A stretch of 35,668 nucleotides of DNA from contig CAMBDY010000020.1 in NCBI GenBank assembly GCA_945865525.1, forward strand, positions 1 through 35,668. The letters run 5' to 3'. The position numbers and the translations under genes were made by a program. The notes beneath the pieces were generated by a model that saw nothing but the letters and a program-made list of their open reading frames with translations, was not told where the DNA came from and made no database searches. This DNA is from Nitrospira lenta. GTDB lineage: Bacteria > Nitrospirota > Nitrospiria > Nitrospirales > Nitrospiraceae. Shown here one piece after another: positions 23,711-35,668 of this stretch. Position 1 is the stretch's first letter, and each line of letters begins with the position of its first letter.

Positions 23711-24529
23711 CTAGAAAATGGCCTTGACCAACTCGAGAATACTCCGTTGCATATCAGGATCGTCAGTGATCGGACGGGCAATCGCGACATCACAGGCTCG
23801 GTCTGTAGCCACGCCCTGCCGGATGAGGGTCCCAGCATAGATCAGCAATCTGGTGCTAACCCCTTCTTCTAACCCATGGTTCTTAAGGTTCCGCACCTTC
23901 CCCGCAAGCTTGACCAACCGAGCCGCCAGGTCGCGATTGACCCCCGCTTCCCGCTCCACCACAGTGGTTTCAATGTCGGGTGCCGGATAATCGAACTGAA
24001 TCGCCATGAAACGCTGCTTCGTGCTTTGCTTCAAATCCTTAAGCACGCTTTGGTAGCCAGGATTGTAAGAAATCACGAGCAGGAAATCGTCGGCTGCTTC
24101 AATCACCTGCCCTTTCTTCTCGATCGGTAGCAAGCGGCGATCGTCGCTCAAGGGATGGATAATAACCGTCGTATCCTTCCGCGCCTCAACGATTTCGTCC
24201 AAATAGACGATCGCACCATGCTTCACGCCAAGCGTCAGGGGCCCATCGACCCAAACCGTCTCCTGGCCCTTAAGCAGATAGCGCCCCACGAGATCTGACG
24301 CCGTGAGGTCCTCATGACAGGCCACCGTAATCAAGGGCCGTCCAAGCCGGTAGGCCATATGCTGGACAAAGCGGGTCTTGCCGCAGCCAGTCGGTCCCTT
24401 AAGCATCACGGGCATCTTGCTGTTCGCCGCAATCGTAAACAGACCGATTTCACTCTGGACCTCCACGTAGAAGGGCTCCCGCTCGATCCGATATTGCTCA
24501 ACGTCAACTTCGCGTGACTGCTGACTCAT
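23711..24529 (-). CDS. cbbQ: CbbQ/NirQ/NorQ-type MoxR AAA+ ATPase
   Basis: This is the motor partner of the CbbO/NorD-like VWA protein encoded downstream. The start is set at the ATG at 24529 ([21 protein letters not shown]), giving 272 residues, the usual CbbQ size; the upstream in-frame start adds an unlikely 25 residues. Motifs are Walker A GPTGCGKT (45-52), the pore-loop region [10 protein letters not shown], Walker B IVYLDEI (107-113), a substrate-loop His-rich segment [15 protein letters not shown], sensor 1 SYNPGY (154-159) and the C-terminal CbbQ domain (about 205-272, [19 protein letters not shown]). It follows the YkgJ-DUF2156 gene by 87 bases. Confidence 0.93.
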
Positions 24530-24616
24530 GGTTTCTGCCCTTGTTGGTTGACACGATCGTGCACTATGGTACGCACGATAAACGGAACCGAGGATGAAGA
24601 TCAAGCAATACAGTCT

Positions 24617-26086
24617 TCATGATTCGCACACGCGGGAGGCAATGACGTTGGGAATCAGCATGGCAGGATGATAGGCTTGCTTGGAGGCGCGCAATCCTGG
24701 AAGACCGGCGTCATCCATTGTATTAATATAATCCGCGCCTTCCGCCATGGCAGTCCTGCAGATCTCCCGAAATAAATATTGAGCCAAGCCAGGGAACGTC
24801 CGGTCCGCAATTTCTACGAGGACACAGAATGTTTTACTCGTCAACCAATAGCCGAATGTATACGCGCAGACCCGGCCATGAATTCTGACCACCGTCCCCC
24901 TAACGGGCAGAACCGACACCTGCGACCATAGAATTTCATGCGCCGACTCCGCATCAGCCAACAACATCACCCCGAACGGGTCCAGTCCTTCCGCCTGCTT
25001 CTGGTATGACCATTCTCTCAACAATACGCGGCAGCCCTGTCGGTCACCAGCCTGATAGGAAGCCACCACCCACGACTGCTCCCGCTCGAATCGATTGCAT
25101 AGCGCCCGTTGAGACTTATATCGATCGCCCGCCAAGGCCGCAAGATCTGCCGCACGATAGAGATAGTCTGGCTCCTTGGGCGTGAGGCGGTACCTCAGCC
25201 GCGCCAACTCTGGCGCCAACGGGGATGACACGTTCTCCACTCGACTGACTGGCACGTTGCCGTTCCAACGATGCAACAGCTCCATCGCATCAGACAGAGG
25301 CCCCTCGATTGAGCCGGGTCCGATCGGCGGAAGGGACAGGAACCAGCCGTCCGGCGATTGCGCAAAGAGGCACACGGCGCCGTGAAGCTCCACCCACCAA
25401 TAGGACAGGACCCCCGTCCAGATATAATGGTAGACCGGCGAGTAGGCCGCAAGCGAGTACGGCCCGCAAAGGCCTGAACGATCCAGCATCATCGTCACAT
25501 ACGGAATATCCTCTAGCATGAGCCGATGCAGTGGCGACGGCCCCCACTGAGTTGCGAAGGCCTCAGTGAGGCTGGAAAGGCACGCCAGCACGATCACGTC
25601 CTCTTGAAACCGCCCAATCAGACGAGGATGTGCGACGACCTGTTCACGGACACTCGGCTGATCAAGTAAAGCTATCACCCGGTTGGCATGACGCTGGATC
25701 TCATCAGGAAGCGCCTCTCGCATGAAGGGGCATTTCGTATCCCACCCTAATAATATATGGCTGTGCGTGGCGTCCCACATCAGCGCCAAAGGATACAGCT
25801 GACAATCTAACGGGCGATGCTCATAGATGCCGCACTGTGAGGTTGCTACGTCGAAGGCTGGGCAACGATACCCTTCTCCACCCAGATCGGGCACCAGAAC
25901 CACCTGCGACCCTCGCAGATTAGGGAAGGCCGTCTTCTCAACGCCCCCGGCCAACGCCCTGGTAATTTCTTGCTCAGTGAAGTACGGGCGAAGGGCGCTG
26001 TCTGGGTCCGGAAATCGGCAACAGACATCGCACTGGAGACAGGTCCCGCTCGGCACAAGTTGTGGGAGGGTAATCGATACCGTCAC
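24617..26086 (-). CDS. fusion of a YkgJ-type cysteine cluster with a DUF2156 (GNAT-like) domain
   Basis: The 489-residue protein starts with CLQCDVCCRF (C16, C19, C22, C23), YRCPAFD (C75), CGIYEHRPLDCQLYPL (C85, C95) and CPF (C119). This is the arrangement of YkgJ/UPF0153 proteins, thought to bind Zn or Fe-S. From about residue 195 to the end it matches DUF2156: PDYLYRAADLAALAGDRYKSQRALCNRFEREQ, WVVASYQ...CRVLLREW, GTVVRIHGRVCAYTFGYWLTSKTFCVLVEIADRTFPGLAQYLFREI, and MDDAGLPGLRASKQAYHP. DUF2156 is the acyltransferase-like fold also found in MprF-type lysyltransferases. The combination suggests a cysteine-cluster-dependent transferase; the substrate is unknown. It is upstream of cbbQ, same strand. 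Confidence 0.85.
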   Translation of the reverse strand: MTVSITLPQLVPSGTCLQCDVCCRFPDPDSALRPYFTEQEITRALAGGVEKTAFPNLRGSQVVLVPDLGGEGYRCPAFDVATSQCGIYEHRPLDCQLYPLALMWDATHSHILLGWDTKCPFMREALPDEIQRHANRVIALLDQPSVREQVVAHPRLIGRFQEDVIVLACLSSLTEAFATQWGPSPLHRLMLEDIPYVTMMLDRSGLCGPYSLAAYSPVYHYIWTGVLSYWWVELHGAVCLFAQSPDGWFLSLPPIGPGSIEGPLSDAMELLHRWNGNVPVSRVENVSSPLAPELARLRYRLTPKEPDYLYRAADLAALAGDRYKSQRALCNRFEREQSWVVASYQAGDRQGCRVLLREWSYQKQAEGLDPFGVMLLADAESAHEILWSQVSVLPVRGTVVRIHGRVCAYTFGYWLTSKTFCVLVEIADRTFPGLAQYLFREICRTAMAEGADYINTMDDAGLPGLRASKQAYHPAMLIPNVIASRVCES

Positions 26087-26380
26087 AAAAATATCCAGAC
26101 GCCCATTGGCCTATAGAAATGGAGTAGAATTCTACTTAACCGGAGGCCATCTTAGCATCGTTCACCGATGCGCCCAAGGGGTCCCTTCTCACTAGCCCCT
26201 CGCCTCTTGTACCAGCCTAACTCCCATGATAGAGTTCAGCGCCCCATATGAAGAGCTTTTATTGACACTGAAATTTTGATGTACTCATGCTACTGCAACA
26301 TATTGAAATATAACTGATTTTTTATGTAAATAAAAAGTGTGTAGCGAGTTCGTAGCAGATTCGCGCTAGAGCAGTCTGCT
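26087..26380. other. gene-free stretch between the DUF2156 gene and the Sel1 fragment
   Basis: Base composition shifts from GC-rich to AT-rich at about 26240. A 7-bp-period tract (TCTCACT, AGCCCCT, CGCCTCT; 26187-26207) lies near the middle. An AT hairpin TTTTTAT/ATAAAAA occurs near 26318-26336. TTGACA occurs at 26262-26267 without a good -10 partner. No gene is visible. Confidence 0.4.
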
Positions 26381-26419
26381 CCTTCGCATCGTAATTACCT
26401 CTTCCCAGTCTTCAGTCGT
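26381..26419 (-). repeat. 39-bp direct repeat, left copy (flanks Sel1/hsd unit)
   Basis: This 39-base segment, beginning CCTTCGCATCGTAATTACCT, recurs at 33502-33540 with one mismatch (position 26405 C versus T). On the minus strand it encodes the last residues of a Sel1 protein (RLKTGKR, stop TAA) followed five bases later by ATGCGAAGG, the first codons of another Sel1-type gene that is lost here (it runs into TAG within eight codons). Confidence 0.85.
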
Positions 26420-26742
26420 GCGTAATACTCACACCCGAGTTTTTCTTTCAGATCACAGGCTTTGCCAAAGAATGTGAGGGCGTCCTTGACAGACTGCCTG
26501 ACCCCTGTGCCCTGCTGATACATCCTCCCAAGATTGAAACAGCCCATCGTCTCCTGTCCATCACAGGCTTTTCGATAGAGTTCCACCGCTTTGAAGACGT
26601 CCTGCGTGACCCCGGTGCCATCCTCATACGCAGACCCGAGCTTGAAACATCCCGCCGCATTTTTTCCATCACAGGCTTTTCGGTAAAGCTCCACCGCTTT
26701 GAAGGAGTCCTGCGTGACGCCGGTGCCCTTCTTATACATCAC
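26395..26742 (-). pseudogene. Sel1-repeat protein, C-terminal fragment
   Basis: The 115 codons (GTG then ATG start) hold about three Sel1 units (GTGVTQDSFKAVELYRKACDGKNAAGCFKLGSAYEDG and so on). The fragment lacks the signal peptide seen in the complete-start paralogue at 33510. It begins in the middle of a repeat (VMYKKGTGVTQD; intact repeats begin GCxNLGVMY). It ends with the usual cap EKLGCEYYARLKTGKR. Sequence upstream of the GTG is unrelated to Sel1 genes. It is best read as the 3' half of a gene whose 5' half is the CDS at 32977-33510, with the hsd cassette between them. It could still be translated as a small soluble protein. Confidence 0.7.
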
Positions 26743-26866
26743 CCCAACCTTTATCCTCGAACCAAGAAACTAAGTCGCCAAGATTCTTGGGTTCTGGCGT
26801 ATTCTTTCGAACATGATCAATGACTTGATCACGGATCTGAATTAGTTTCGTGGAAAATTCAAACAT
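26732..26866 (-). CDS. 44-residue small ORF immediately after hsdR
   Basis: It starts (ATG 26866) nine bases after the hsdR stop and ends TAA at 26732-26734, overlapping the start of the Sel1 fragment. The peptide (MFEFSTKLIQIRDQVIDHVRKN...SWFEDKGWGDV) is acidic and helical-looking. Its segment IQIRDQVIDHVR matches residues 38-48 of the HsdR (LIRDQVINFIR), and the underlying DNA is also nearly identical (ATCCGTGATCAxGT). Either it is a genuine small protein co-translated with hsdR, or it is debris from a rearrangement that copied part of hsdR. No ribosome site is evident. Confidence 0.45.
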   Translation of the reverse strand: MFEFSTKLIQIRDQVIDHVRKNTPEPKNLGDLVSWFEDKGWGDV

Positions 26867-26875
26867 TTTCAAAAG

Positions 26876-29842
26876 TTAACTTACGGATCGTTGTTTGCTA
26901 ATCGAAGGGAATTGTTGGTTTTTATAGTCCTTGTACATCATTTGGAAGATTAAGTTCTTCATCGAAGGGTTGTCATCCATCTTTTTGTAAAAATCAAAAC
27001 GTTCGTTGATGTAATCAATCATCATCCCTTCGAACTGTTGTTTGAAGAAGCTTTGCTTGTTGTCTTCGGTGTTATCACCCTTCATGTACTTTTGTACTTC
27101 AGGGTCTTCAATCAAGCGCTTACTCAACCGAGAAAGATCGAGACGATCCTCTTCGGTGAGATTGACACCGTAAGTTGTGTTCACTTGATTGATGATTTCA
27201 GATAAGAAGTCGTACTCTGGCTCCGTAACCCCCGTAGTTATAAATTCGGGTGGGGTGAGAATCGAATCTTCAGTAACCAAGCCCTCGATGTGCTCATGTA
27301 TTTTTTGAATACGTAAAGAATCAAGGTCGATGGTGTCGGAAATATCGAAACGATCGACCTGACGTTTAGGTAGCTTCTTGTTCAAGTACTTCAGGAATAC
27401 AAAAGACTTTTCGAGCTCAATGTCCGTGAAGCTGATGATTTGAGAGAGGTATCCGTACATACGGATGTATGACTGAATCTTTGATCTGAAATCCTCTCGA
27501 ATCTCATCATCTTCAATACGATTGAAGTTATCTACCACTCGATCAAGAATATGGTGAAGGTTTCCTTCGTCACGTCTTGGATCGAAAAAGACTTCACAGA
27601 AGCGGTTTACGTCCTCATTCGTGTAGAGATGAAAGTTATAGATTTCTCTCTGTAAGTCGTAGAGTCGATTAGGGTCGGTCTCACCCTCTAGGATTGTTGA
27701 CTGGTAAAAGCGTTGGAACGATTCTCTAATTTCTTCAGGCTCGTTAACGAAATCCAATACGAAGGTTTCTGTTTTACCTGATGTCGTTCTATTAAGACGG
27801 GAAAGCGTCTGAACACATTGAACACCACCTAGTTTTTTATCTACATACATAGATTGAACTAACGGTTCATCAAAGCCCGTCTGGAATTTATTAGCTACGA
27901 CCAGAAGTCGGAACTTAGGATTTTTAAGACCAAGAGGAACGTCACCATCATGACCAATCCCCGAGTTACAGCTTGATTCTGTAAACTTTTCATGATCGAT
28001 AGAGACCTCACCAGAGAACCCAACCAAGCAACGATAGTAAAGCCCTCGTTCCTCGAGTTGTCGGTTAATTTCTTTGAAGTACCAAACACAATGCTTTCTA
28101 GATTGAGTGACGATCATTCCTCTAGATCGACCTTGAATTTCTTTGGAGCCTTTGTCGATCCAATGATCCAGCATGATTTGAACTTTGCTACGAATGGTCA
28201 TCTCATGAGAGTCGACGTAACGAACAAGCTCTAGCTTCCCTTTACCTGTAGGAACTTTAATGTCACCATCTTTAGTCTGCTTTACTTTGAAGTAGCGTTT
28301 GTATGTTGTGTAGTTCTGAAGGACGTCTAAAGTGAAGCCTTCATGGATGGACTGGTACATCGAATAGATGTGGAACGGAACAAACTTCCCCTCCTGTGTC
28401 TTCGTACCGAATAATTCGAGAGTCTTTTCCTTGGGTGTACCTGTGAAGCCGAAGAATGAAATGTGGGATTGTTTTCCACGACTCTGAATCTCTTGACGTA
28501 GCATTTCTTCATAGTCGAATTCATCGTCATCTTCGTCAGATTTGGACAGAGACTTCTTGAGCTCTTTTGACAGTTCACCCGATTGACTCGAATGAACTTC
28601 GTCGATGATCACACCAAAAGTTTTATTCCCTAGTGAAGCGATCGTTTCGGAAATAAACGGGAACTTCTGGATAGTCGTGATGACAATATCTTTACCTTGC
28701 TCTAAGAACTTCCTGAGCTCTTGTGAGCCGTGTTCAACCCCATTAACTACTCCATCAATCTTTTCAAGCGAGCGAATTGTGTTTCGTAGCTGATCATCAA
28801 GCACAGTTCTATCAGTCACAACGATGATGGTGTCGAATAGACGCTTGGTGTCACCCTTTGATCGATATAACGAAGTCAGGGTATGAGATAGCCAGCCGAT
28901 TGAATAGGACTTTCCAGAACCTGTCGTATGTTGAACAAGGTAGTTCTTCCCGACACCATCTTCCTTGAGTTGTCGTCTGAACTTACGGATCAAATCGAGC
29001 TGGTGATATCGAGGAAAGACAAGAACTTCCTTCACTACTGAATCGATCTTTTGAGTCTTGTCGTTGAAGAAGAATTTCTTCTCTTTTGATAGATGGACAA
29101 AATTCTCCAGAACATCCAACAGTGAAGAAGGGGGAAGTATTTCTTCCCACAAATATTTGGTTCGATACCCGCTCTCGACAGACGGGTTCTCTAGGTCACG
29201 GTTGTATGGGAGAAAGAAAGTCTTCTGACCTGCTAACCGAGTCGTCATGGACACTCGGTTGTTATCAACACAGAAATGAACCATACATCGCTTGAAGTTA
29301 AGCAACGGCTCTTTCGGATCTCGATCAAATCGGTACTGGTTCTCAGAATGCTTGACGTTTTGTCCAGTTAGCTGGTTCTTTAGTTCCATCGTCACGATGG
29401 GAAATCCATTCAGAAAGAGAACCATGTCAATGGAGTTCTCATTTTGTTCTGAATAGTGAAGCTGTCTAACTACCGTGAATTGATTTGATTGGTAGAGTTT
29501 TAGGTGGTCTGGATTGAGATCGCTCTTTGGCTCGAAATAGCAGAGATTCAGGTAAACACCACGATCAACAACCTGATTTCTCAAAACATCGATGATCCCT
29601 CGCTTTGAAATTTCCGAAGACACACGAGCAAGGACTTTGTTTTCGGTGTCGACATCGTAGATTTCTTGAAGACGACCCCATTGCTCAGGTTGAGTAGATC
29701 GAATGAAGTTGATTACCTGATCACGGATCAAGCAAAGGTTACGGTCATATCCACTAAAGTGGAGGGTAGAGTAACCAACGGTCTTCAGATGGTCTTCAAT
29801 GTGCTCTTCAAATCTTTTTTCTGTAGGGCTTAGACCGCTCAT
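26876..29842 (-). CDS. hsdR: type I restriction enzyme, HsdR subunit
   Basis: HsdR is the motor and nuclease of the type I complex: it translocates and cuts unmodified DNA remote from the target. The 988-residue protein has an N-terminal PD-(D/E)xK nuclease: D139 (SIDMVLFLNGFP) and ELK (153-155, TMELKN), with QxxxY-like SENQYRF after it. The SF2 helicase domains follow: TTGSGKS (306-312), IIDEVHSSQ (412-420), FFGFTGTP, and FQTGFDEP...RLNRTTSGK. The C-terminal part is helical. Its start overlaps the hsdS stop by four bases (ATGA). All catalytic residues I can check are present, so the system appears active. The base composition is much more AT-rich than the flanks. Confidence 0.95.
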   Translation of the reverse strand: MSGLSPTEKRFEEHIEDHLKTVGYSTLHFSGYDRNLCLIRDQVINFIRSTQPEQWGRLQEIYDVDTENKVLARVSSEISKRGIIDVLRNQVVDRGVYLNLCYFEPKSDLNPDHLKLYQSNQFTVVRQLHYSEQNENSIDMVLFLNGFPIVTMELKNQLTGQNVKHSENQYRFDRDPKEPLLNFKRCMVHFCVDNNRVSMTTRLAGQKTFFLPYNRDLENPSVESGYRTKYLWEEILPPSSLLDVLENFVHLSKEKKFFFNDKTQKIDSVVKEVLVFPRYHQLDLIRKFRRQLKEDGVGKNYLVQHTTGSGKSYSIGWLSHTLTSLYRSKGDTKRLFDTIIVVTDRTVLDDQLRNTIRSLEKIDGVVNGVEHGSQELRKFLEQGKDIVITTIQKFPFISETIASLGNKTFGVIIDEVHSSQSGELSKELKKSLSKSDEDDDEFDYEEMLRQEIQSRGKQSHISFFGFTGTPKEKTLELFGTKTQEGKFVPFHIYSMYQSIHEGFTLDVLQNYTTYKRYFKVKQTKDGDIKVPTGKGKLELVRYVDSHEMTIRSKVQIMLDHWIDKGSKEIQGRSRGMIVTQSRKHCVWYFKEINRQLEERGLYYRCLVGFSGEVSIDHEKFTESSCNSGIGHDGDVPLGLKNPKFRLLVVANKFQTGFDEPLVQSMYVDKKLGGVQCVQTLSRLNRTTSGKTETFVLDFVNEPEEIRESFQRFYQSTILEGETDPNRLYDLQREIYNFHLYTNEDVNRFCEVFFDPRRDEGNLHHILDRVVDNFNRIEDDEIREDFRSKIQSYIRMYGYLSQIISFTDIELEKSFVFLKYLNKKLPKRQVDRFDISDTIDLDSLRIQKIHEHIEGLVTEDSILTPPEFITTGVTEPEYDFLSEIINQVNTTYGVNLTEEDRLDLSRLSKRLIEDPEVQKYMKGDNTEDNKQSFFKQQFEGMMIDYINERFDFYKKMDDNPSMKNLIFQMMYKDYKNQQFPSISKQRSVS

Positions 29843-31161
29843 ATTATTTCCTCCGTAACTCTTACCTTCCCAGTCACGACCGAAGATATTAGAGATTGTC
29901 TGTACTCTTTAAGCAAAGCCTTACGAGCTAACAATCTCTCAGACAATTGCTTAGTTGTTCGACTTACCATCGAAATTTTGTGGGCTATTTGTTTTTGTTC
30001 GTCTTCGGGTGGAGCTACGACTTTAAGGTTCTCAATCGACCCCTTACCTAGTCCAAATCTAGTTATCCCGCTTGATGAAACATAAAAATAGTCTTTTGCA
30101 TTTTTCGACTCAATGTATCGATAAATGAACTCTGAGTGAAAGTCAGTCGACTTCATTCGAATAATGGCTAGGTGATATCCACATACCGTGTTATCTAAGT
30201 CTTCATTCACGATTGTCGGAATCCCAATGTCATCTGGAGACTCGGAATCTTTGGTGAGAAGAATGTCACCTCTTCGTAAAGAGAATTTTTCAAATTCGTT
30301 ATCAGAGCAGGTTCCCGATGGAAGAACTGATTTTGAGTCGATGTACTCGTTCTTATAGACATCAGGATAGTGACAAATATTGACCCGTTTTTCATCCTCG
30401 TATTCGTGACGATCAACGGAACTCAGCTCTACGCTCGAGATATGCTTCAGCACCTCAATATTCCAGTGTTTCGGTATTTCACCAATCCAATCGATACCGC
30501 TGTCCTTCATCTCAACATTTGGATCGAGCCCTTTGGTCACATACTGATTGATCAATGAGGTACGTTGCTCTTTGAGTAGCTCGATTCTCTTTTTAATCTT
30601 GCTTATCAATTTGTCAATTTGGCTTGTTTTCTTGTCGAGGTAGCGGGAGATTATTTTTTGTTCATTAAGTGGAGGAAGAACTCCGAAAACATCACCAAAA
30701 GAATCATCATACAAACGCAACCGAGACATTGTTATCCCTGTTGAGTTACGTCTAAACTCAGTAATGTATTCTTCGGATCTTAAAAGGTAATTGAAATACC
30801 AAGGATCACATTCTTTGCTAAACGAGAATACTGAGTATGCTGGAGAAACTATTCCCGAATATGGGCTAACACCTAAACCTCTTTTCCAAACCAGCATTAT
30901 ATTATTTACTAAGTTTCCCTCTTCAACTAGTCTGTATCCAATTAAATCGTCAGATCGACTTAATGGTTCGTCATCACTTTTTAGTTCTTTTCTTTTAATA
31001 ATTCCTCTAGTCTCTGTCACTGAGAGTAGCTCTTCTTCACCGGTTTCAGAGAGCTCTTTCTTTGATTTTGTTAGGTACTTTAGTCTTTTTAATTTCCATC
31101 CTTCTGGAACTTCGCTAATATGACTTCGATTATTATTATGATGGATTTCATAGTTACTCAT
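29839..31161 (-). CDS. hsdS: type I restriction-modification specificity subunit HsdS
   Basis: HsdS reads the bipartite target. The start is set at the ATG at 31161 (MSNYEIHHNN), because ATGAGTAA overlaps the hsdM stop by eight bases, a typical coupling; the upstream in-frame start would overlap hsdM by 47. In 440 residues there are two target-recognition domains, each opening with a similar segment (VPEGWKLKRLKYL and IPKHWNIEVLKHI). Two conserved coiled-coil regions follow (NEQKIISRYLDKKTSQIDKLISKIKKRIELLKEQRTSLINQYVTKG and EDEQKQIAHKISMVSRTTKQLSERLLARKALLKEYRQSL). No truncation or invertible repeats are visible. The recognised sequence cannot be read from this. Confidence 0.95.
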   Translation of the reverse strand: MSNYEIHHNNNRSHISEVPEGWKLKRLKYLTKSKKELSETGEEELLSVTETRGIIKRKELKSDDEPLSRSDDLIGYRLVEEGNLVNNIMLVWKRGLGVSPYSGIVSPAYSVFSFSKECDPWYFNYLLRSEEYITEFRRNSTGITMSRLRLYDDSFGDVFGVLPPLNEQKIISRYLDKKTSQIDKLISKIKKRIELLKEQRTSLINQYVTKGLDPNVEMKDSGIDWIGEIPKHWNIEVLKHISSVELSSVDRHEYEDEKRVNICHYPDVYKNEYIDSKSVLPSGTCSDNEFEKFSLRRGDILLTKDSESPDDIGIPTIVNEDLDNTVCGYHLAIIRMKSTDFHSEFIYRYIESKNAKDYFYVSSSGITRFGLGKGSIENLKVVAPPEDEQKQIAHKISMVSRTTKQLSERLLARKALLKEYRQSLISSVVTGKVRVTEEII

Positions 31162-32866
31162 CAACGATCTCCATCGATAATTTACTGATTTCATCGTCAA
31201 GTGACTTCAAGTCTTTTGAGATCTCTTCCAAACTTCTTAATGGAGTGAATTTATAAAAGTATTTTGTGAAGTTGATTTCGTAGCCAATCTTGTCTTTAGA
31301 ACGATCCAGCCACGAATCAGATAGATGAGGCTTCACCTCACGCTCATAATATCTTTCAATACTTTCAGACAGCGGAACACGTTCGCTATCTCTTTTCGAT
31401 GTGTCGGGCTTTGGATTTCCTTGAGAATCGTTCTTGACTTTACCGTTTTCGATTAAAGGTTGTTCAACCACTACCTTTGTGTAACCGGAAAAGCTATTGG
31501 GGTAAATCTTACAAAACTCGTTTTCTTCGAATTTTTGATAGATATTAAATAGCTGTTCTGTCTGTTCTTCGGTAATGTACTTACCTTTATCCCCAAGATT
31601 TTTTTTCATTGAAGTCGAGAACGAGCTTCCATCAATCAACTGAATCTTACCTTTACGTTCTGGAGACTTTTTATTAGTCACGATCCAGATGTAGGTCGTA
31701 ATCCCCGTATTGAAGAACATGCGGTCTGGTAAAGACACGATACATTCCAACCAATCATTTTCAATCACCCATTTTCGAATCTCAGATTCACCACTACCAG
31801 CGTCACCAGTAAAGAGCGGGGAGCCGTTAAAGACGATACCGATACGGGAGCCTTCAGGATTCATCTTGTGAATGAGGTGCTGAAGGAACAGCAGTGACCC
31901 GTCTGAGGTTCGTGGTGTTCCGACAAAGAAGCGACCATTTGGATCTTTAGCTTCTTCCGTCACAAACTCTTCTTCGGATTTCCAGCTCACGCCAAAAGGT
32001 GGATTGGTGATCATATAGTCAAACTTACGACCTTGTAACCGATCGTCAGATATAGACGAACATGGTCCATGAATGTTGTCGGGGTTCTCATCCATCATAA
32101 GTAGATCGGACTTACAGATTGAATAAGTTACATCATTTAGTTCTTGACCGTATAGGTCGACCTTCAGGTTTGGATTGATGTTTTCGTGTATCCATTCCTT
32201 ACCAATGGTCAACAGACCCCCTGTTCCACAACAGGGGTCAAAAACTGAACGAATCTTTCCTTCCCCTTGAAGGTCCTTACGATCCCCTCCAAATACAAAG
32301 GAGACTAACAATTTCACAACGTCTCGTGGTGTGAAGTGGTCTCCGCTTTCCTCGTTCGACATTTCCGAGAATTTACGAAGTAGCTCTTCATAGACCGAGC
32401 CCATTTGGTGGTTGTCGATCTTGTTTGGATGAAGGTCGAATTCGGTGAACTTATCAATCAGCAAGTACAACCGTTTGTTCTTATGTAGCTTCTCTACAAG
32501 CGGATTGATCGAAAAGTTTTCGATGATGTCAAGTACATTCTTTGAGTATCCCTGAACGTAGTTGTTGAAATTTATCAACACGTTATTCGGGTCGCTCTTG
32601 ATACGGGATAGGTCGAACTTAGATGAATTGAAAAACGGGTAGCCGACCTTTCTCAAGATCACAGGAGTGGAATCGGACAGTTGGTCTTTGTATTTTGTGT
32701 AGAGCTCAAAGACTTCATCTTTTTTTGGTTCTAGTACACAGTCCAATCGTCTCATCACCACAAACGGAAGAATCACCCGTCCGTATTCGGAAGGTTTGAA
32801 TAAACCTCTTAGAACATCATCGGCTGATGACCAAATAAGTGAGGATAGGTTGGTTGTATTGTTCAT
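31154..32866 (-). CDS. hsdM: type I DNA N6-adenine methyltransferase HsdM
   Basis: HsdM methylates adenine in the target with S-adenosylmethionine. In 570 residues the N-terminal helical HsdM_N region (1-140) is followed by MGSVYEELLRKFSE and HFTPRDVVKLL (178-188). The AdoMet motif I is FDPCCGTGG (209-217) and the catalytic motif IV is NPPF (288-291). The C-terminal region contains the usual HsdM tail with a coiled coil (KDLKSLDDEISKLSMEI). It starts with ATG at 32866 after a purine-rich AAAGAGAAA leader and heads the hsdM-hsdS-hsdR operon. It is as AT-rich as the rest of the cassette. Confidence 0.96.
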   Translation of the reverse strand: MNNTTNLSSLIWSSADDVLRGLFKPSEYGRVILPFVVMRRLDCVLEPKKDEVFELYTKYKDQLSDSTPVILRKVGYPFFNSSKFDLSRIKSDPNNVLINFNNYVQGYSKNVLDIIENFSINPLVEKLHKNKRLYLLIDKFTEFDLHPNKIDNHQMGSVYEELLRKFSEMSNEESGDHFTPRDVVKLLVSFVFGGDRKDLQGEGKIRSVFDPCCGTGGLLTIGKEWIHENINPNLKVDLYGQELNDVTYSICKSDLLMMDENPDNIHGPCSSISDDRLQGRKFDYMITNPPFGVSWKSEEEFVTEEAKDPNGRFFVGTPRTSDGSLLFLQHLIHKMNPEGSRIGIVFNGSPLFTGDAGSGESEIRKWVIENDWLECIVSLPDRMFFNTGITTYIWIVTNKKSPERKGKIQLIDGSSFSTSMKKNLGDKGKYITEEQTEQLFNIYQKFEENEFCKIYPNSFSGYTKVVVEQPLIENGKVKNDSQGNPKPDTSKRDSERVPLSESIERYYEREVKPHLSDSWLDRSKDKIGYEINFTKYFYKFTPLRSLEEISKDLKSLDDEISKLSMEIVDE

Positions 32867-32976
32867 TTTTTTCTCTTTTTAATTTACTTCTCAGTTTAAG
32901 TTGTGTGGGCGAGTTAGTGGTTGTTTCTAGCTCCGACGCAACTCTTTTCTTTTGATTTCTTGCTTTCAGTTTTCAG

Positions 32977-33510
32977 CTACTGACGCTGCGAGGCTATCTG
33001 GCTAGTAAACCTCGCTACAGACTGTCGCACGCTGTTTCCCTGCTCATACATCCACCCAAGCTGCCAACATCCCCCCCCAAACTGCCCGTCACAGGCTTTC
33101 CGATAGAGCTCCACCGCTTTGAAGGAGTCCTGCGTGACGCCTTTTCCTTTGGAATACATCACTCCAAGATTGGTACATCCCCTCGCATTCTTCCCATCAC
33201 ACGCTTGCCGATAGAGTTCCACTGCCTTGAAGTGATCCTGCGTAACGCCATCGCCTTTTTCATACATCACTCCAAGATTGAAACATCCCATCGCCTCCTG
33301 CCCGTCACAGGTTTTTTGATAGAACTCCACAGCTTTGAAGTTATCCTGTGTGACGCCTTGTCCGTTGTAATACATCACTCCAAGATTGAAACATCCCACC
33401 GCATTACCCTGCTGACACGCCTTAGTTAGTTCCTCAGGTGTCTGCGCAGATGCGAAATCCACGACTCCAAGTGTCCCTATGAGCAACAGTACTGTCAGCA
33501 CCCTTCGCAT
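32977..33510 (-). CDS. exported Sel1-repeat protein, C-terminally truncated
   Basis: The ATG at 33510 is chosen because AGAGGT lies nine bases upstream and a signal peptide follows (MRRVLTVLLLIGTLGVVDFASAQ). The 177-residue product then has about four 36-residue Sel1 units (GNAVGCFNLGVMYYNGQGVTQDNFKAVEFYQKTCDGQ and so on), an alpha-solenoid used for protein-protein contacts in the periplasm. After VRQSV the frame leaves Sel1 similarity and ends ARFTSQIASQRQ; the paralogous fragment at 26395 instead continues KDALTFFGKACDLKEKLGCEYYARLKTGKR. The last repeat and cap have been replaced, consistent with interruption by the hsd cassette. Confidence 0.8.
   Translation of the reverse strand: MRRVLTVLLLIGTLGVVDFASAQTPEELTKACQQGNAVGCFNLGVMYYNGQGVTQDNFKAVEFYQKTCDGQEAMGCFNLGVMYEKGDGVTQDHFKAVELYRQACDGKNARGCTNLGVMYSKGKGVTQDSFKAVELYRKACDGQFGGGCWQLGWMYEQGNSVRQSVARFTSQIASQRQ
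32988..33015. repeat. short hairpin at the right junction of the hsd island
   Basis: GCGAGG (32988-32993) and CCTCGC (33010-33015) form a perfect 6-bp inverted repeat with a 16-base loop. It starts at the base where similarity of the Sel1 gene to its paralogue stops. It lies within the last codons of the truncated Sel1 frame. A 7-bp-period tract continues beyond it (about 32943-32985). Confidence 0.45.
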
Positions 33511-33540
33511 CGTAATTACCTCTTTCCAGTCTTCAGTCGT
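33502..33540 (-). repeat. 39-bp direct repeat, right copy
   Basis: This second copy of the segment at 26381-26419 has one mismatch. On the minus strand it still carries RLKTGKR and TAA, the tail of a now-missing upstream Sel1 gene, five bases before the ATG of the Sel1 CDS. Beyond it (33541 onward) similarity ends. The two copies lie 7.1 kb apart in the same orientation. Confidence 0.85.
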
Positions 33541-33644
33541 ATCTCGCGGCAAACCATCACCCAAACAGTAAAAAAAGTCAAAAAAGTGCTCAAATCACAC
33601 CCGGTCACATAGCATTCTCACAGGCACTATGGTATGTCGAGCCC

Positions 33645-35668
33645 ATGACGGCCCCACACGTACTCCTCCTCACGCCGCCCCTCACGCAGCTGAATACGCC
33701 CTATCCGGCCACGGCCTATCTCACGGGATTTCTCCAGAGCCACGGCATTGAGGCCCGCCAAGCCGACCTCGGTATCGACATGGTGCTCAGGATCTTCAAT
33801 CGCTCCGGACTCCAATCCGTCTTCGAGCACATCCGCCAGCGGACGGAGACGTTGCCCGGTGAAGCGCAGCAGATGCTCGTCATCGCCCCGGCCTATCTGA
33901 ACACGATCGAGCCCGTCATCGAATTCCTGCAGGGGCGCAATCCGGCGCTGGCCTGCCTCTTGGCCCGGCCAGGGTTTCTGCCGCAAGGCCCGCGATTCGC
34001 CCGGCATCGCGGACGCACGTCACCGTTACGCGCGTTACCCGAGCACGATCGTGCGAAACGCTATGCGACCCTCTACCTCGAAGACCTCGCCGATCTCATT
34101 CAGGCGACGGTCTCACCGTATTTTGCGCTGAGCCGCTATGCGGAACAGATCGCCACCGCCGCCTCATCGTTTGCGCCCCTCATCGACGCCGTCGCCGCCC
34201 CCCCGACGCTGACCGATCACTTCATGCTCGACGCCTTATGGGCCCATCTCGAGCACTTCACCCCAACCCTCGTGGTCCTCACCGTGCCTTTTCCCGGAAA
34301 TCTCTATGGCGCCTTTCGCATCGCCCACGCGCTCAAGGCCCGACGACCCGCGTGCGTGATTGCGCTCGGCGGCGGCTATGTCAACACGGAGCTGCGTCGG
34401 TTATCTGATCCCCGCGTCTTCGACTACATCGATTACGTCACGCTCGACGACGGCGAACGGCCGCTCCTGTCCTTGATCGAACATCTGGCTGGCACGCGGT
34501 CGCGTGCGCAGCTCTGCCGCACCTTCTTGCGCGAGCAGGGCCGCGTCGTCTTTACCCATACGACCACCGATCCTGAATTCAGTATGAATGCGGTCGGCTG
34601 TCCCACCTATCGCGGACTGGACCTCAGTCGCTATCTCACGATCCTCGACAGCACGAACCCCATGCACCGCCTCTGGTCGGAAGGCCATTGGAATAAACTC
34701 ACGGTTGCCCACGGCTGTTACTGGAAGCAATGTACGTTTTGCGATATTGGGCTCAACTACATCAGCCGCTATGAAATGACGCCGACCGATCGGCTCGTCC
34801 AACAGATCGAGCAACTGATCGCCGAGACAGGCTGTCGTGGATTCCACTTTGTCGATGAAGCAGCCCCTCCCGCTGCTTTGAAAGCGCTCGCCTTGGCACT
34901 ATTAGAACGAGGCATCACCATTTCATGGTGGGGCAATATCCGCTTTGAAGAAGCGTTCACGCCGGACCTCTGCCGCCTCCTGGCGGCTTCCGGCTGCATC
35001 GCCGTGACCGCTGGACTTGAAGCTGCCTCGGATCGTCTATTGGAGAAGATCAAGAAAGGGATCACCGTCGATCAGACTGCGCTTGTGGCAGCAGCCTTCA
35101 AAGACGCAGGCATTCTCATTCATGCCTATCTCATGTACGGCTGTCCCTCTGAAACCGTACAAGAAACGGTGGACTCGCTCGAACGGGTGCGACAACTGTT
35201 CGCGGCGGATCTGATTCAATCAGCCTTCTGGCATCGTTTCACTGCGACAGCCCATAGCCCGATCGGCCTCCAGCCGGCTGCCCATGGATTGCGCATCCTC
35301 GGGCCTGAATTTCAGGGCTTTGCAGAAAACGATCTCCTGCATCAGGATCGACATGGCAAGACACCGGAATGGCTAGGCGAAGGGTTACGCCGGTCGATCC
35401 TAAATTACCTCGAAGGGAGCGGACTCACACTCGATGTCCGCCAGTGGTTCGACCATGCCGTGCCAAAACCTCATGTCTCTTCTTCGTGGGTACGTCGTCT
35501 ACTCAAGGACCGAACGGTTCAAGATGACCCACGAGCAGAACGGCGGTTCGTATGGCTTGGCGGGCAACCAGTCTGCGAGCCTGTCGGAAGAAGAATCCGG
35601 CTCATTCTACCGGGACGCACCAGCGATCAGGCCATCACTGTCTCCAACCCGCAAGCCCAGTGGCTTGA
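33645..35668 (+). CDS. B12-binding-domain radical SAM protein (3' end outside window)
   Basis: The frame is open from the ATG at 33645 to the window edge (674 codons, no stop). The N-terminal part (HVLLLTPPLTQLNTPYPATAYLTGFLQSHGIEARQADLG) and LALGGGYVNTELRRL are typical of cobalamin-binding Rossmann domains fused to radical SAM enzymes. The [4Fe-4S]/AdoMet motif is GCYWKQCTFC (C358, C363, C366), i.e. C-X4-C-X2-C, one residue longer than the classic spacing. Core SAM strands follow: GFHFVDEAAPPAAL, SWWGNIRFEEAFT, GLEAASDRLLEKIKKGI and HAYLMYGCPSET. The substrate is unknown; the family includes methyltransferases and other C-C/C-H chemists. It is divergent from the Sel1 gene. Codon use is GC-rich like the host. 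Confidence 0.88.
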   Translation, partial: MTAPHVLLLTPPLTQLNTPYPATAYLTGFLQSHGIEARQADLGIDMVLRIFNRSGLQSVFEHIRQRTETLPGEAQQMLVIAPAYLNTIEPVIEFLQGRNPALACLLARPGFLPQGPRFARHRGRTSPLRALPEHDRAKRYATLYLEDLADLIQATVSPYFALSRYAEQIATAASSFAPLIDAVAAPPTLTDHFMLDALWAHLEHFTPTLVVLTVPFPGNLYGAFRIAHALKARRPACVIALGGGYVNTELRRLSDPRVFDYIDYVTLDDGERPLLSLIEHLAGTRSRAQLCRTFLREQGRVVFTHTTTDPEFSMNAVGCPTYRGLDLSRYLTILDSTNPMHRLWSEGHWNKLTVAHGCYWKQCTFCDIGLNYISRYEMTPTDRLVQQIEQLIAETGCRGFHFVDEAAPPAALKALALALLERGITISWWGNIRFEEAFTPDLCRLLAASGCIAVTAGLEAASDRLLEKIKKGITVDQTALVAAAFKDAGILIHAYLMYGCPSETVQETVDSLERVRQLFAADLIQSAFWHRFTATAHSPIGLQPAAHGLRILGPEFQGFAENDLLHQDRHGKTPEWLGEGLRRSILNYLEGSGLTLDVRQWFDHAVPKPHVSSSWVRRLLKDRTVQDDPRAERRFVWLGGQPVCEPVGRRIRLILPGRTSDQAITVSNPQAQWL

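What the first reader, a model, noticed from the sequence alone, without database searches (positions are those of the whole stretch)
26381..33540. Type I R-M cassette splits a Sel1-repeat gene and the whole unit is bracketed by a 39-bp direct repeat
Seen: the Sel1 CDS at 32977-33510 has a signal peptide but loses Sel1 similarity after VRQSV. The fragment at 26395-26742 starts mid-repeat without a signal peptide but has the natural C-terminal cap. The hsdMSR cassette lies exactly between them and is AT-richer. Both ends of the 7.1-kb unit carry the same 39-bp segment (Sel1 tail + 5 bases + ATGCGAAGG). Inference: an ancestral tandem array of Sel1 genes was invaded, and the 39-bp repeats could recombine to excise the whole unit, leaving one copy.
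Basis: partly seen in the sequence, partly recalled or inferred. Interest (0 to 1): 0.6.

Follow-up and report, generated by a model that had tools for sequence, protein, structure and literature searches.

The report
Restriction system inside a sel1 array
A horizontally acquired type I restriction-modification operon sits between two truncated members of a tandem sel1 gene family in a Nitrospira-like bacterium; the 39-bp repeat around it is the normal sel1-to-sel1 junction of that family, so this looks like an ordinary insertion scar and not a new mobile unit.

Summary
Two 39-bp segments (26381-26419, 33502-33540) match at 38/39. Between them lie a signal-peptide-bearing sel1 gene that loses similarity after VRQSV, an intact AT-rich (41% GC) hsdM-hsdS-hsdR operon, and a sel1 C-terminal piece. 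The interpretation needs correcting. The pieces are remnants of two paralogs, not halves of one gene: both contain the final VRQSV repeat, and their overlap is only 73% identical. The 39-bp segment is sel1 stop region + TTACG + ATGCGAAGG of the next gene. It recurs between two uninterrupted tandem sel1 genes on another contig (36/38) and after a third sel1 tail (87%), so it neither marks nor defines the cassette. No congener carries the operon as DNA or has the two flanks adjacent, so no empty site was found. The LPG-synthase flank ends (26271) where its usual neighbour was split off; that neighbour now sits beside a tyrosine integrase on contig C4, and both sides share GTGTCAAT. This suggests integrative-element activity. 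A better excision substrate than the 39-bp pair is a perfect 35-bp in-frame repeat inside the two sel1 pieces. Ordinary horizontally acquired type I R-M; low interest.

The parts
24617..26086 (-). Flanking core gene: CxxCxxCC + LPG_synthase_C domain protein
   Evidence: Pfam; next to the same ~490-aa divergent gene in congeners
26272..26380 (.). AT-rich (35% GC) spacer; congener homology of the LPG-side flank stops at 26271 (shared core GTGTCAAT / ATTGACAC)
26381..26419 (-). 39-bp segment, copy 1: sel1 C-terminus + stop + TTACG + ATGCGAAGG
26395..26742 (-). sel1 paralog remnant B: C-terminal three repeats and cap, no signal peptide
   Evidence: Pfam Sel1, paralog alignment
26687..26721 (-). 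35-bp perfect in-frame direct repeat, copy 1
26732..26866 (-). Truncated ORF downstream of hsdR (MFEFSTKLIQIRDQVIDHVRKNTPEPKNLGDLVSWFEDK...), cut at the sel1 junction near 26746
   Evidence: no Pfam match
26876..29842 (-). hsdR, type I restriction subunit, 988 aa
29839..31200 (-). hsdS, specificity subunit
31154..32866 (-). hsdM, N6-adenine methyltransferase subunit
32914..33016 (.). 103-bp non-coding stretch at the sel1 breakpoint; 85% identical to a thiD/tenA spacer in congener G001, which has neither sel1 nor hsd there
32977..33510 (-). sel1 paralog A: signal peptide and five repeats, truncated after VRQSV, ends in foreign sequence
33107..33141 (-). 35-bp perfect in-frame direct repeat, copy 2
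33502..33540 (-). 39-bp segment, copy 2: leader, RBS and start codon of sel1 paralog A
33645..35668 (+). Flanking core gene: B12-binding/radical SAM protein, open to the contig end; congener homology begins at about 33602-33610

Best explanation
A horizontally acquired, apparently intact type I R-M operon (hsdM-hsdS-hsdR) was inserted by non-homologous or element-borne recombination into a tandem array of sel1 genes. It removed the 3' end of one paralog, the junction between paralogs and the 5' part of the next. The 39-bp direct repeat predates the insertion: it is the array's normal gene-to-gene junction (tail of one sel1, RBS and start of the next), and one copy survives on each side. The region is also a chromosomal junction. 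On the LPG-synthase side an integrative element appears to have split a conserved gene pair, and the R-M operon probably came with that or a related AT-rich element. The operon acts as ordinary host defence (HsdMS methylates, HsdMSR cleaves unmodified DNA); sel1 paralog A may still make a secreted Sel1-repeat protein without its C-terminal cap. Shown: anatomy, paralogy, extra 39-bp copies, broken synteny. Inferred: order of events, vehicle, activity.
For: 39-bp copies elsewhere: C21:2733-2770, between two uninterrupted tandem sel1 genes (2 mismatches in 38), and C4:57805-57843 (87%) after a sel1 tail. Both window pieces contain the terminal VRQSV repeat; paralog A is 84% identical to C21 gene 2 but 73% to piece B. 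Third-position-biased differences show both were coding. GC is 41% for hsd versus 58-60% for the flanks. hsd DNA is absent from 31 congeners apart from matches under 100 bp; HsdR's nearest relatives in the order are only 43% identical. The LPG gene's usual neighbour is now at C4:1360-2835 beside a 409-aa tyrosine integrase at 42% GC, and both broken ends share GTGTCAAT.
Against: No empty site was found, so the array's pre-insertion state in this lineage is reconstructed from paralogs. The window has no integrase or transposase at this locus, and the integrase on C4 cannot be linked to this contig because both contigs end. The host is a draft genome in 39 contigs, so a misassembled join cannot be fully excluded. 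How the radical SAM gene came to lie on the other side is unexplained.
Confidence: 0.7

Rival explanations
1. One reading: the 7.1-kb segment is a discrete cassette that excises by recombination between the 39-bp repeats.
For: Two 39-bp direct repeats at 38/39 identity on both sides.
Against: The same segment is the ordinary sel1 junction at other loci without R-M. The longest exact run is 23 bp over 7.1 kb. No excised or empty allele was found in congeners. A 35-bp perfect in-frame pair is a better substrate.
Confidence: 0.1
2. Insertion with long target duplication, as described for R-M systems in Helicobacter: one sel1 gene was hit and about 250 bp of it was duplicated on both sides, then diverged.
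For: The two pieces overlap by about 259 bp ending at the two junctions, and they share the longest exact match (35 bp) either has with any paralog examined.
Against: The overlap is only 73% identical, no closer than to other paralogs. The end repeats differ in register. The 39-bp segment at both ends needs a tandem array, not one gene.
Confidence: 0.13
3. Assembly artefact: the contig is a false join at repeated sel1 sequence.
For: sel1 paralogs are repeated in the genome, the genome is in 39 contigs, and neither flank pairing is seen in congeners.
Against: The joins between sel1 and hsd DNA are unique sequence, not shared repeats. The genome is rated 99.7% complete and 1% contaminated.
Confidence: 0.07

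Closest known systems
Horizontally acquired type I restriction-modification systems on genomic islands
   Same: Complete hsdM, hsdS and hsdR operon, low GC, patchy distribution, integrase gene at a linked synteny break
   Different: The integrase is on another contig and the link is inferred; the landing place is a sel1 array
R-M insertion with long target duplication (Nobusato et al. 2000, cited in PMC3031569)
   Same: R-M genes between direct copies of host sequence
   Different: Here the copies are diverged pre-existing paralogs (73%), not fresh duplications
R-M complexes flanked by direct IS repeats (PMC3031569)
   Same: R-M operon between direct repeats that could in principle recombine
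   Different: No IS; the repeats are host sel1 gene ends

Membership tests
Type I restriction-modification system | HsdM: HsdM_N plus N6_Mtase domains | tested here: met
   Pfam PF12161 and PF02384, PADLOC MTase_I E=8e-232
Type I restriction-modification system | HsdS with target-recognition domains | tested here: met
   PF01420 in Pfam (one stretch), PADLOC Specificity_I E=3e-97 over residues 25-450
Type I restriction-modification system | HsdR with HSDR_N nuclease and SF2 ATPase domains | tested here: met
   PF04313, PF18766, PF04851
Type I restriction-modification system | Methylates and cleaves DNA | not testable with these tools
   Needs methylome sequencing or a plating assay
Composite or excisable unit bounded by specific repeats | Boundary repeats specific to the unit | tested here: not met
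   The 39-bp segment also occurs at C21 and C4 sel1 loci without R-M
Composite or excisable unit bounded by specific repeats | Empty site in relatives | tested here: inconclusive
   No fetched congener locus holds both flanks together, so there was no empty site to read
Insertion with long target duplication | Flanking copies near-identical and mutually closest | tested here: not met
   72-73% identity, no closer than to other paralogs
Integrative element (genomic island) | Tyrosine integrase at one end and shared core at both broken ends | tested here: inconclusive
   Integrase at C4:2-1228 (Pfam E=4e-5, below the curated cut-off) and GTGTCAAT on both sides, but the contigs are not linked

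The most novel reading that the evidence does not exclude
Tandem sel1 arrays in this lineage serve as recurrent landing and excision sites for defence cargo: recombination between in-frame repeats (35 bp here) in the two truncated paralogs would delete the R-M operon and leave an in-frame chimeric sel1 gene, making the R-M system reversibly losable.
Probability: 0.06. Interest if true: 0.5.

Novelty: new member of a known kind. Interest (0 to 1): 0.17.

Why it matters
It is a worked example of how a striking 'bracketing repeat' can be the ordinary junction of a tandem gene family, and of an R-M operon at a chromosomal rearrangement point in a small-genome Nitrospira relative. It does not change what is known of R-M mobility.

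Tried and rejected
Rfam on 24000-35668 and on the 103-bp stretch and its G001 relative: no credible family. The 103-bp stretch was not found in plasmids, its 26-nt core not in viral contigs, and it was absent from the rest of 236 genomes of the order. Folding gave z -1.3, no sign of a structured RNA. tRNA attachment site: the window's tRNAs lie at 5.6-10.3 kb, none near the locus. The truncated ORF after hsdR has no Pfam match and no counterpart beside HsdR relatives; a short stretch resembles HsdR's own N-terminus. The usual upstream neighbour of the radical SAM gene was not found in this genome (an empty answer without a positive control). A paper search for Nitrospira with Sel1 gave nothing on this.

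Full report
What is there. The window is contig C20 of a 1.80-Mb, 39-contig genome (99.7% complete) of a Nitrospira-like genus. On the minus strand, from high to low coordinates, the region reads: 39-bp copy 2 (33502-33540), which is the leader, RBS and start codon of sel1 gene A (32977-33510); a 103-bp non-coding stretch; hsdM, hsdS and hsdR; a truncated ORF; sel1 piece B (26395-26742); and 39-bp copy 1 (26381-26419). The R-M operon is complete by domain content and AT-rich at 41% GC against 58-60% in the flanking core DNA.

The 39-bp repeat. It matches at 38/39 and is not chance. Read on the minus strand it is RLKTGKR-stop + TTACG + ATGCGAAGG, so it overlaps the end of one sel1 gene and the start of the next. 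A genome-wide scan found a third copy at C21:2733-2770 with 2 mismatches in 38. It lies exactly between two uninterrupted tandem sel1 genes with no R-M system. A fourth copy (87%) follows a sel1 tail at C4:57805-57843. In congener G001 the sel1 tail is followed after a similar gap by ATGCGAA as well. The sel1 tails at C1, C2 and C19 lack it.

One gene or two. The related sel1 genes most similar to these end with a final repeat GVRQS..DALTF.GKAC followed by the cap. Piece A reaches VRQSV and piece B has its own VRQSV, so they overlap by about 259 bp. In that overlap they are 73% identical, no closer to each other than to other paralogs, and A is 84% identical to C21 gene 2. They are best read as remnants of two paralogs. 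Differences are concentrated at third codon positions, so both were coding until recently. The breakpoint in A sits where the native family often has CGAGGACGC and the foreign stretch has GCGAGGTTTAC, a possible microhomology join (inference from one case).

A second, better repeat. The longest perfect match between the two pieces is 35 bp (26687-26721 and 33107-33141), 6420 bp apart and in frame. Recombination there would delete the operon and give an in-frame chimeric sel1. This is a prediction only; another paralog pair (C21 gene 2 and C4) also shares 35 bp, so the length is normal for the family.

Relatives. The hsd DNA is absent from 31 congeners except for matches of under 100 bp; HsdR relatives in the order are at most 43% identical. 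The radical SAM flank is found in 28 congeners, with homology starting near 33602-33610 at the earliest; the LPG-synthase flank was studied in 21 loci. No locus held both flanks, so no empty site could be read. In those 21 loci a divergent ORF of about 480-560 aa lies beside the LPG gene (judged by position, size and N-terminus). The Baikal-G1 version of its protein was searched in this genome and found at C4:1360-2835, directly beside a 409-aa tyrosine integrase in 42% GC DNA at the contig end. Window and C4 lose homology to the ancestral spacer at the same place and share GTGTCAAT. This fits one integrative element that split the pair; whether it carried the hsd operon cannot be decided because both contigs end.

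Verdict. A type I R-M operon acquired by horizontal transfer, set in a tandem sel1 array at a chromosomal junction. Interest is low, and the remaining openness is whether sel1 repeats allow its loss.

Noticed in passing
window 32914-33016; L159 5985-6087 (G001:C29:125984-126086): A 103-bp non-coding stretch, 85% identical, in two small-genome congeners at unrelated loci and in no other of 236 genomes of the order. In G001 it fills the thiD/tenA spacer, where congeners hold about 1.6 kb of other DNA.
   Followed up: partly
L197 3384-3457 (G000:C8:45383-45456): Sequence that lies immediately left of the 103-bp stretch in G001 also occurs in this genome beside a serine resolvase gene and a tyrosine integrase next to a tRNA gene, an apparent genomic island.
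   Followed up: partly
L201 2-1228 (G000:C4:2-1228): Tyrosine integrase at a contig end, inserted at the start codon of a conserved gene that is normally the divergent neighbour of the window's LPG-synthase gene.
   Followed up: partly
L010 3823-4332 (G000:C4): An ORF that joins a lipoprotein-like N-terminal half to the C-terminal repeat and cap of a sel1 gene, with a sel1 signal-peptide remnant just upstream; another rearranged sel1 copy.
   Followed up: no
L012 3452-3481, L011 2610-2636: A conserved promoter-like motif (TTTGACATAYCCCTTCATGTAG) upstream of the C1 and C2 sel1 genes; its reverse complement borders the 103-bp stretch in G001.
   Followed up: no
L201 1069-1090 and L012 3515-3536: 22 bp of perfect identity between the C4 integrase gene and the DNA upstream of the C2 sel1 gene, perhaps an integrase remnant.
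   Followed up: no
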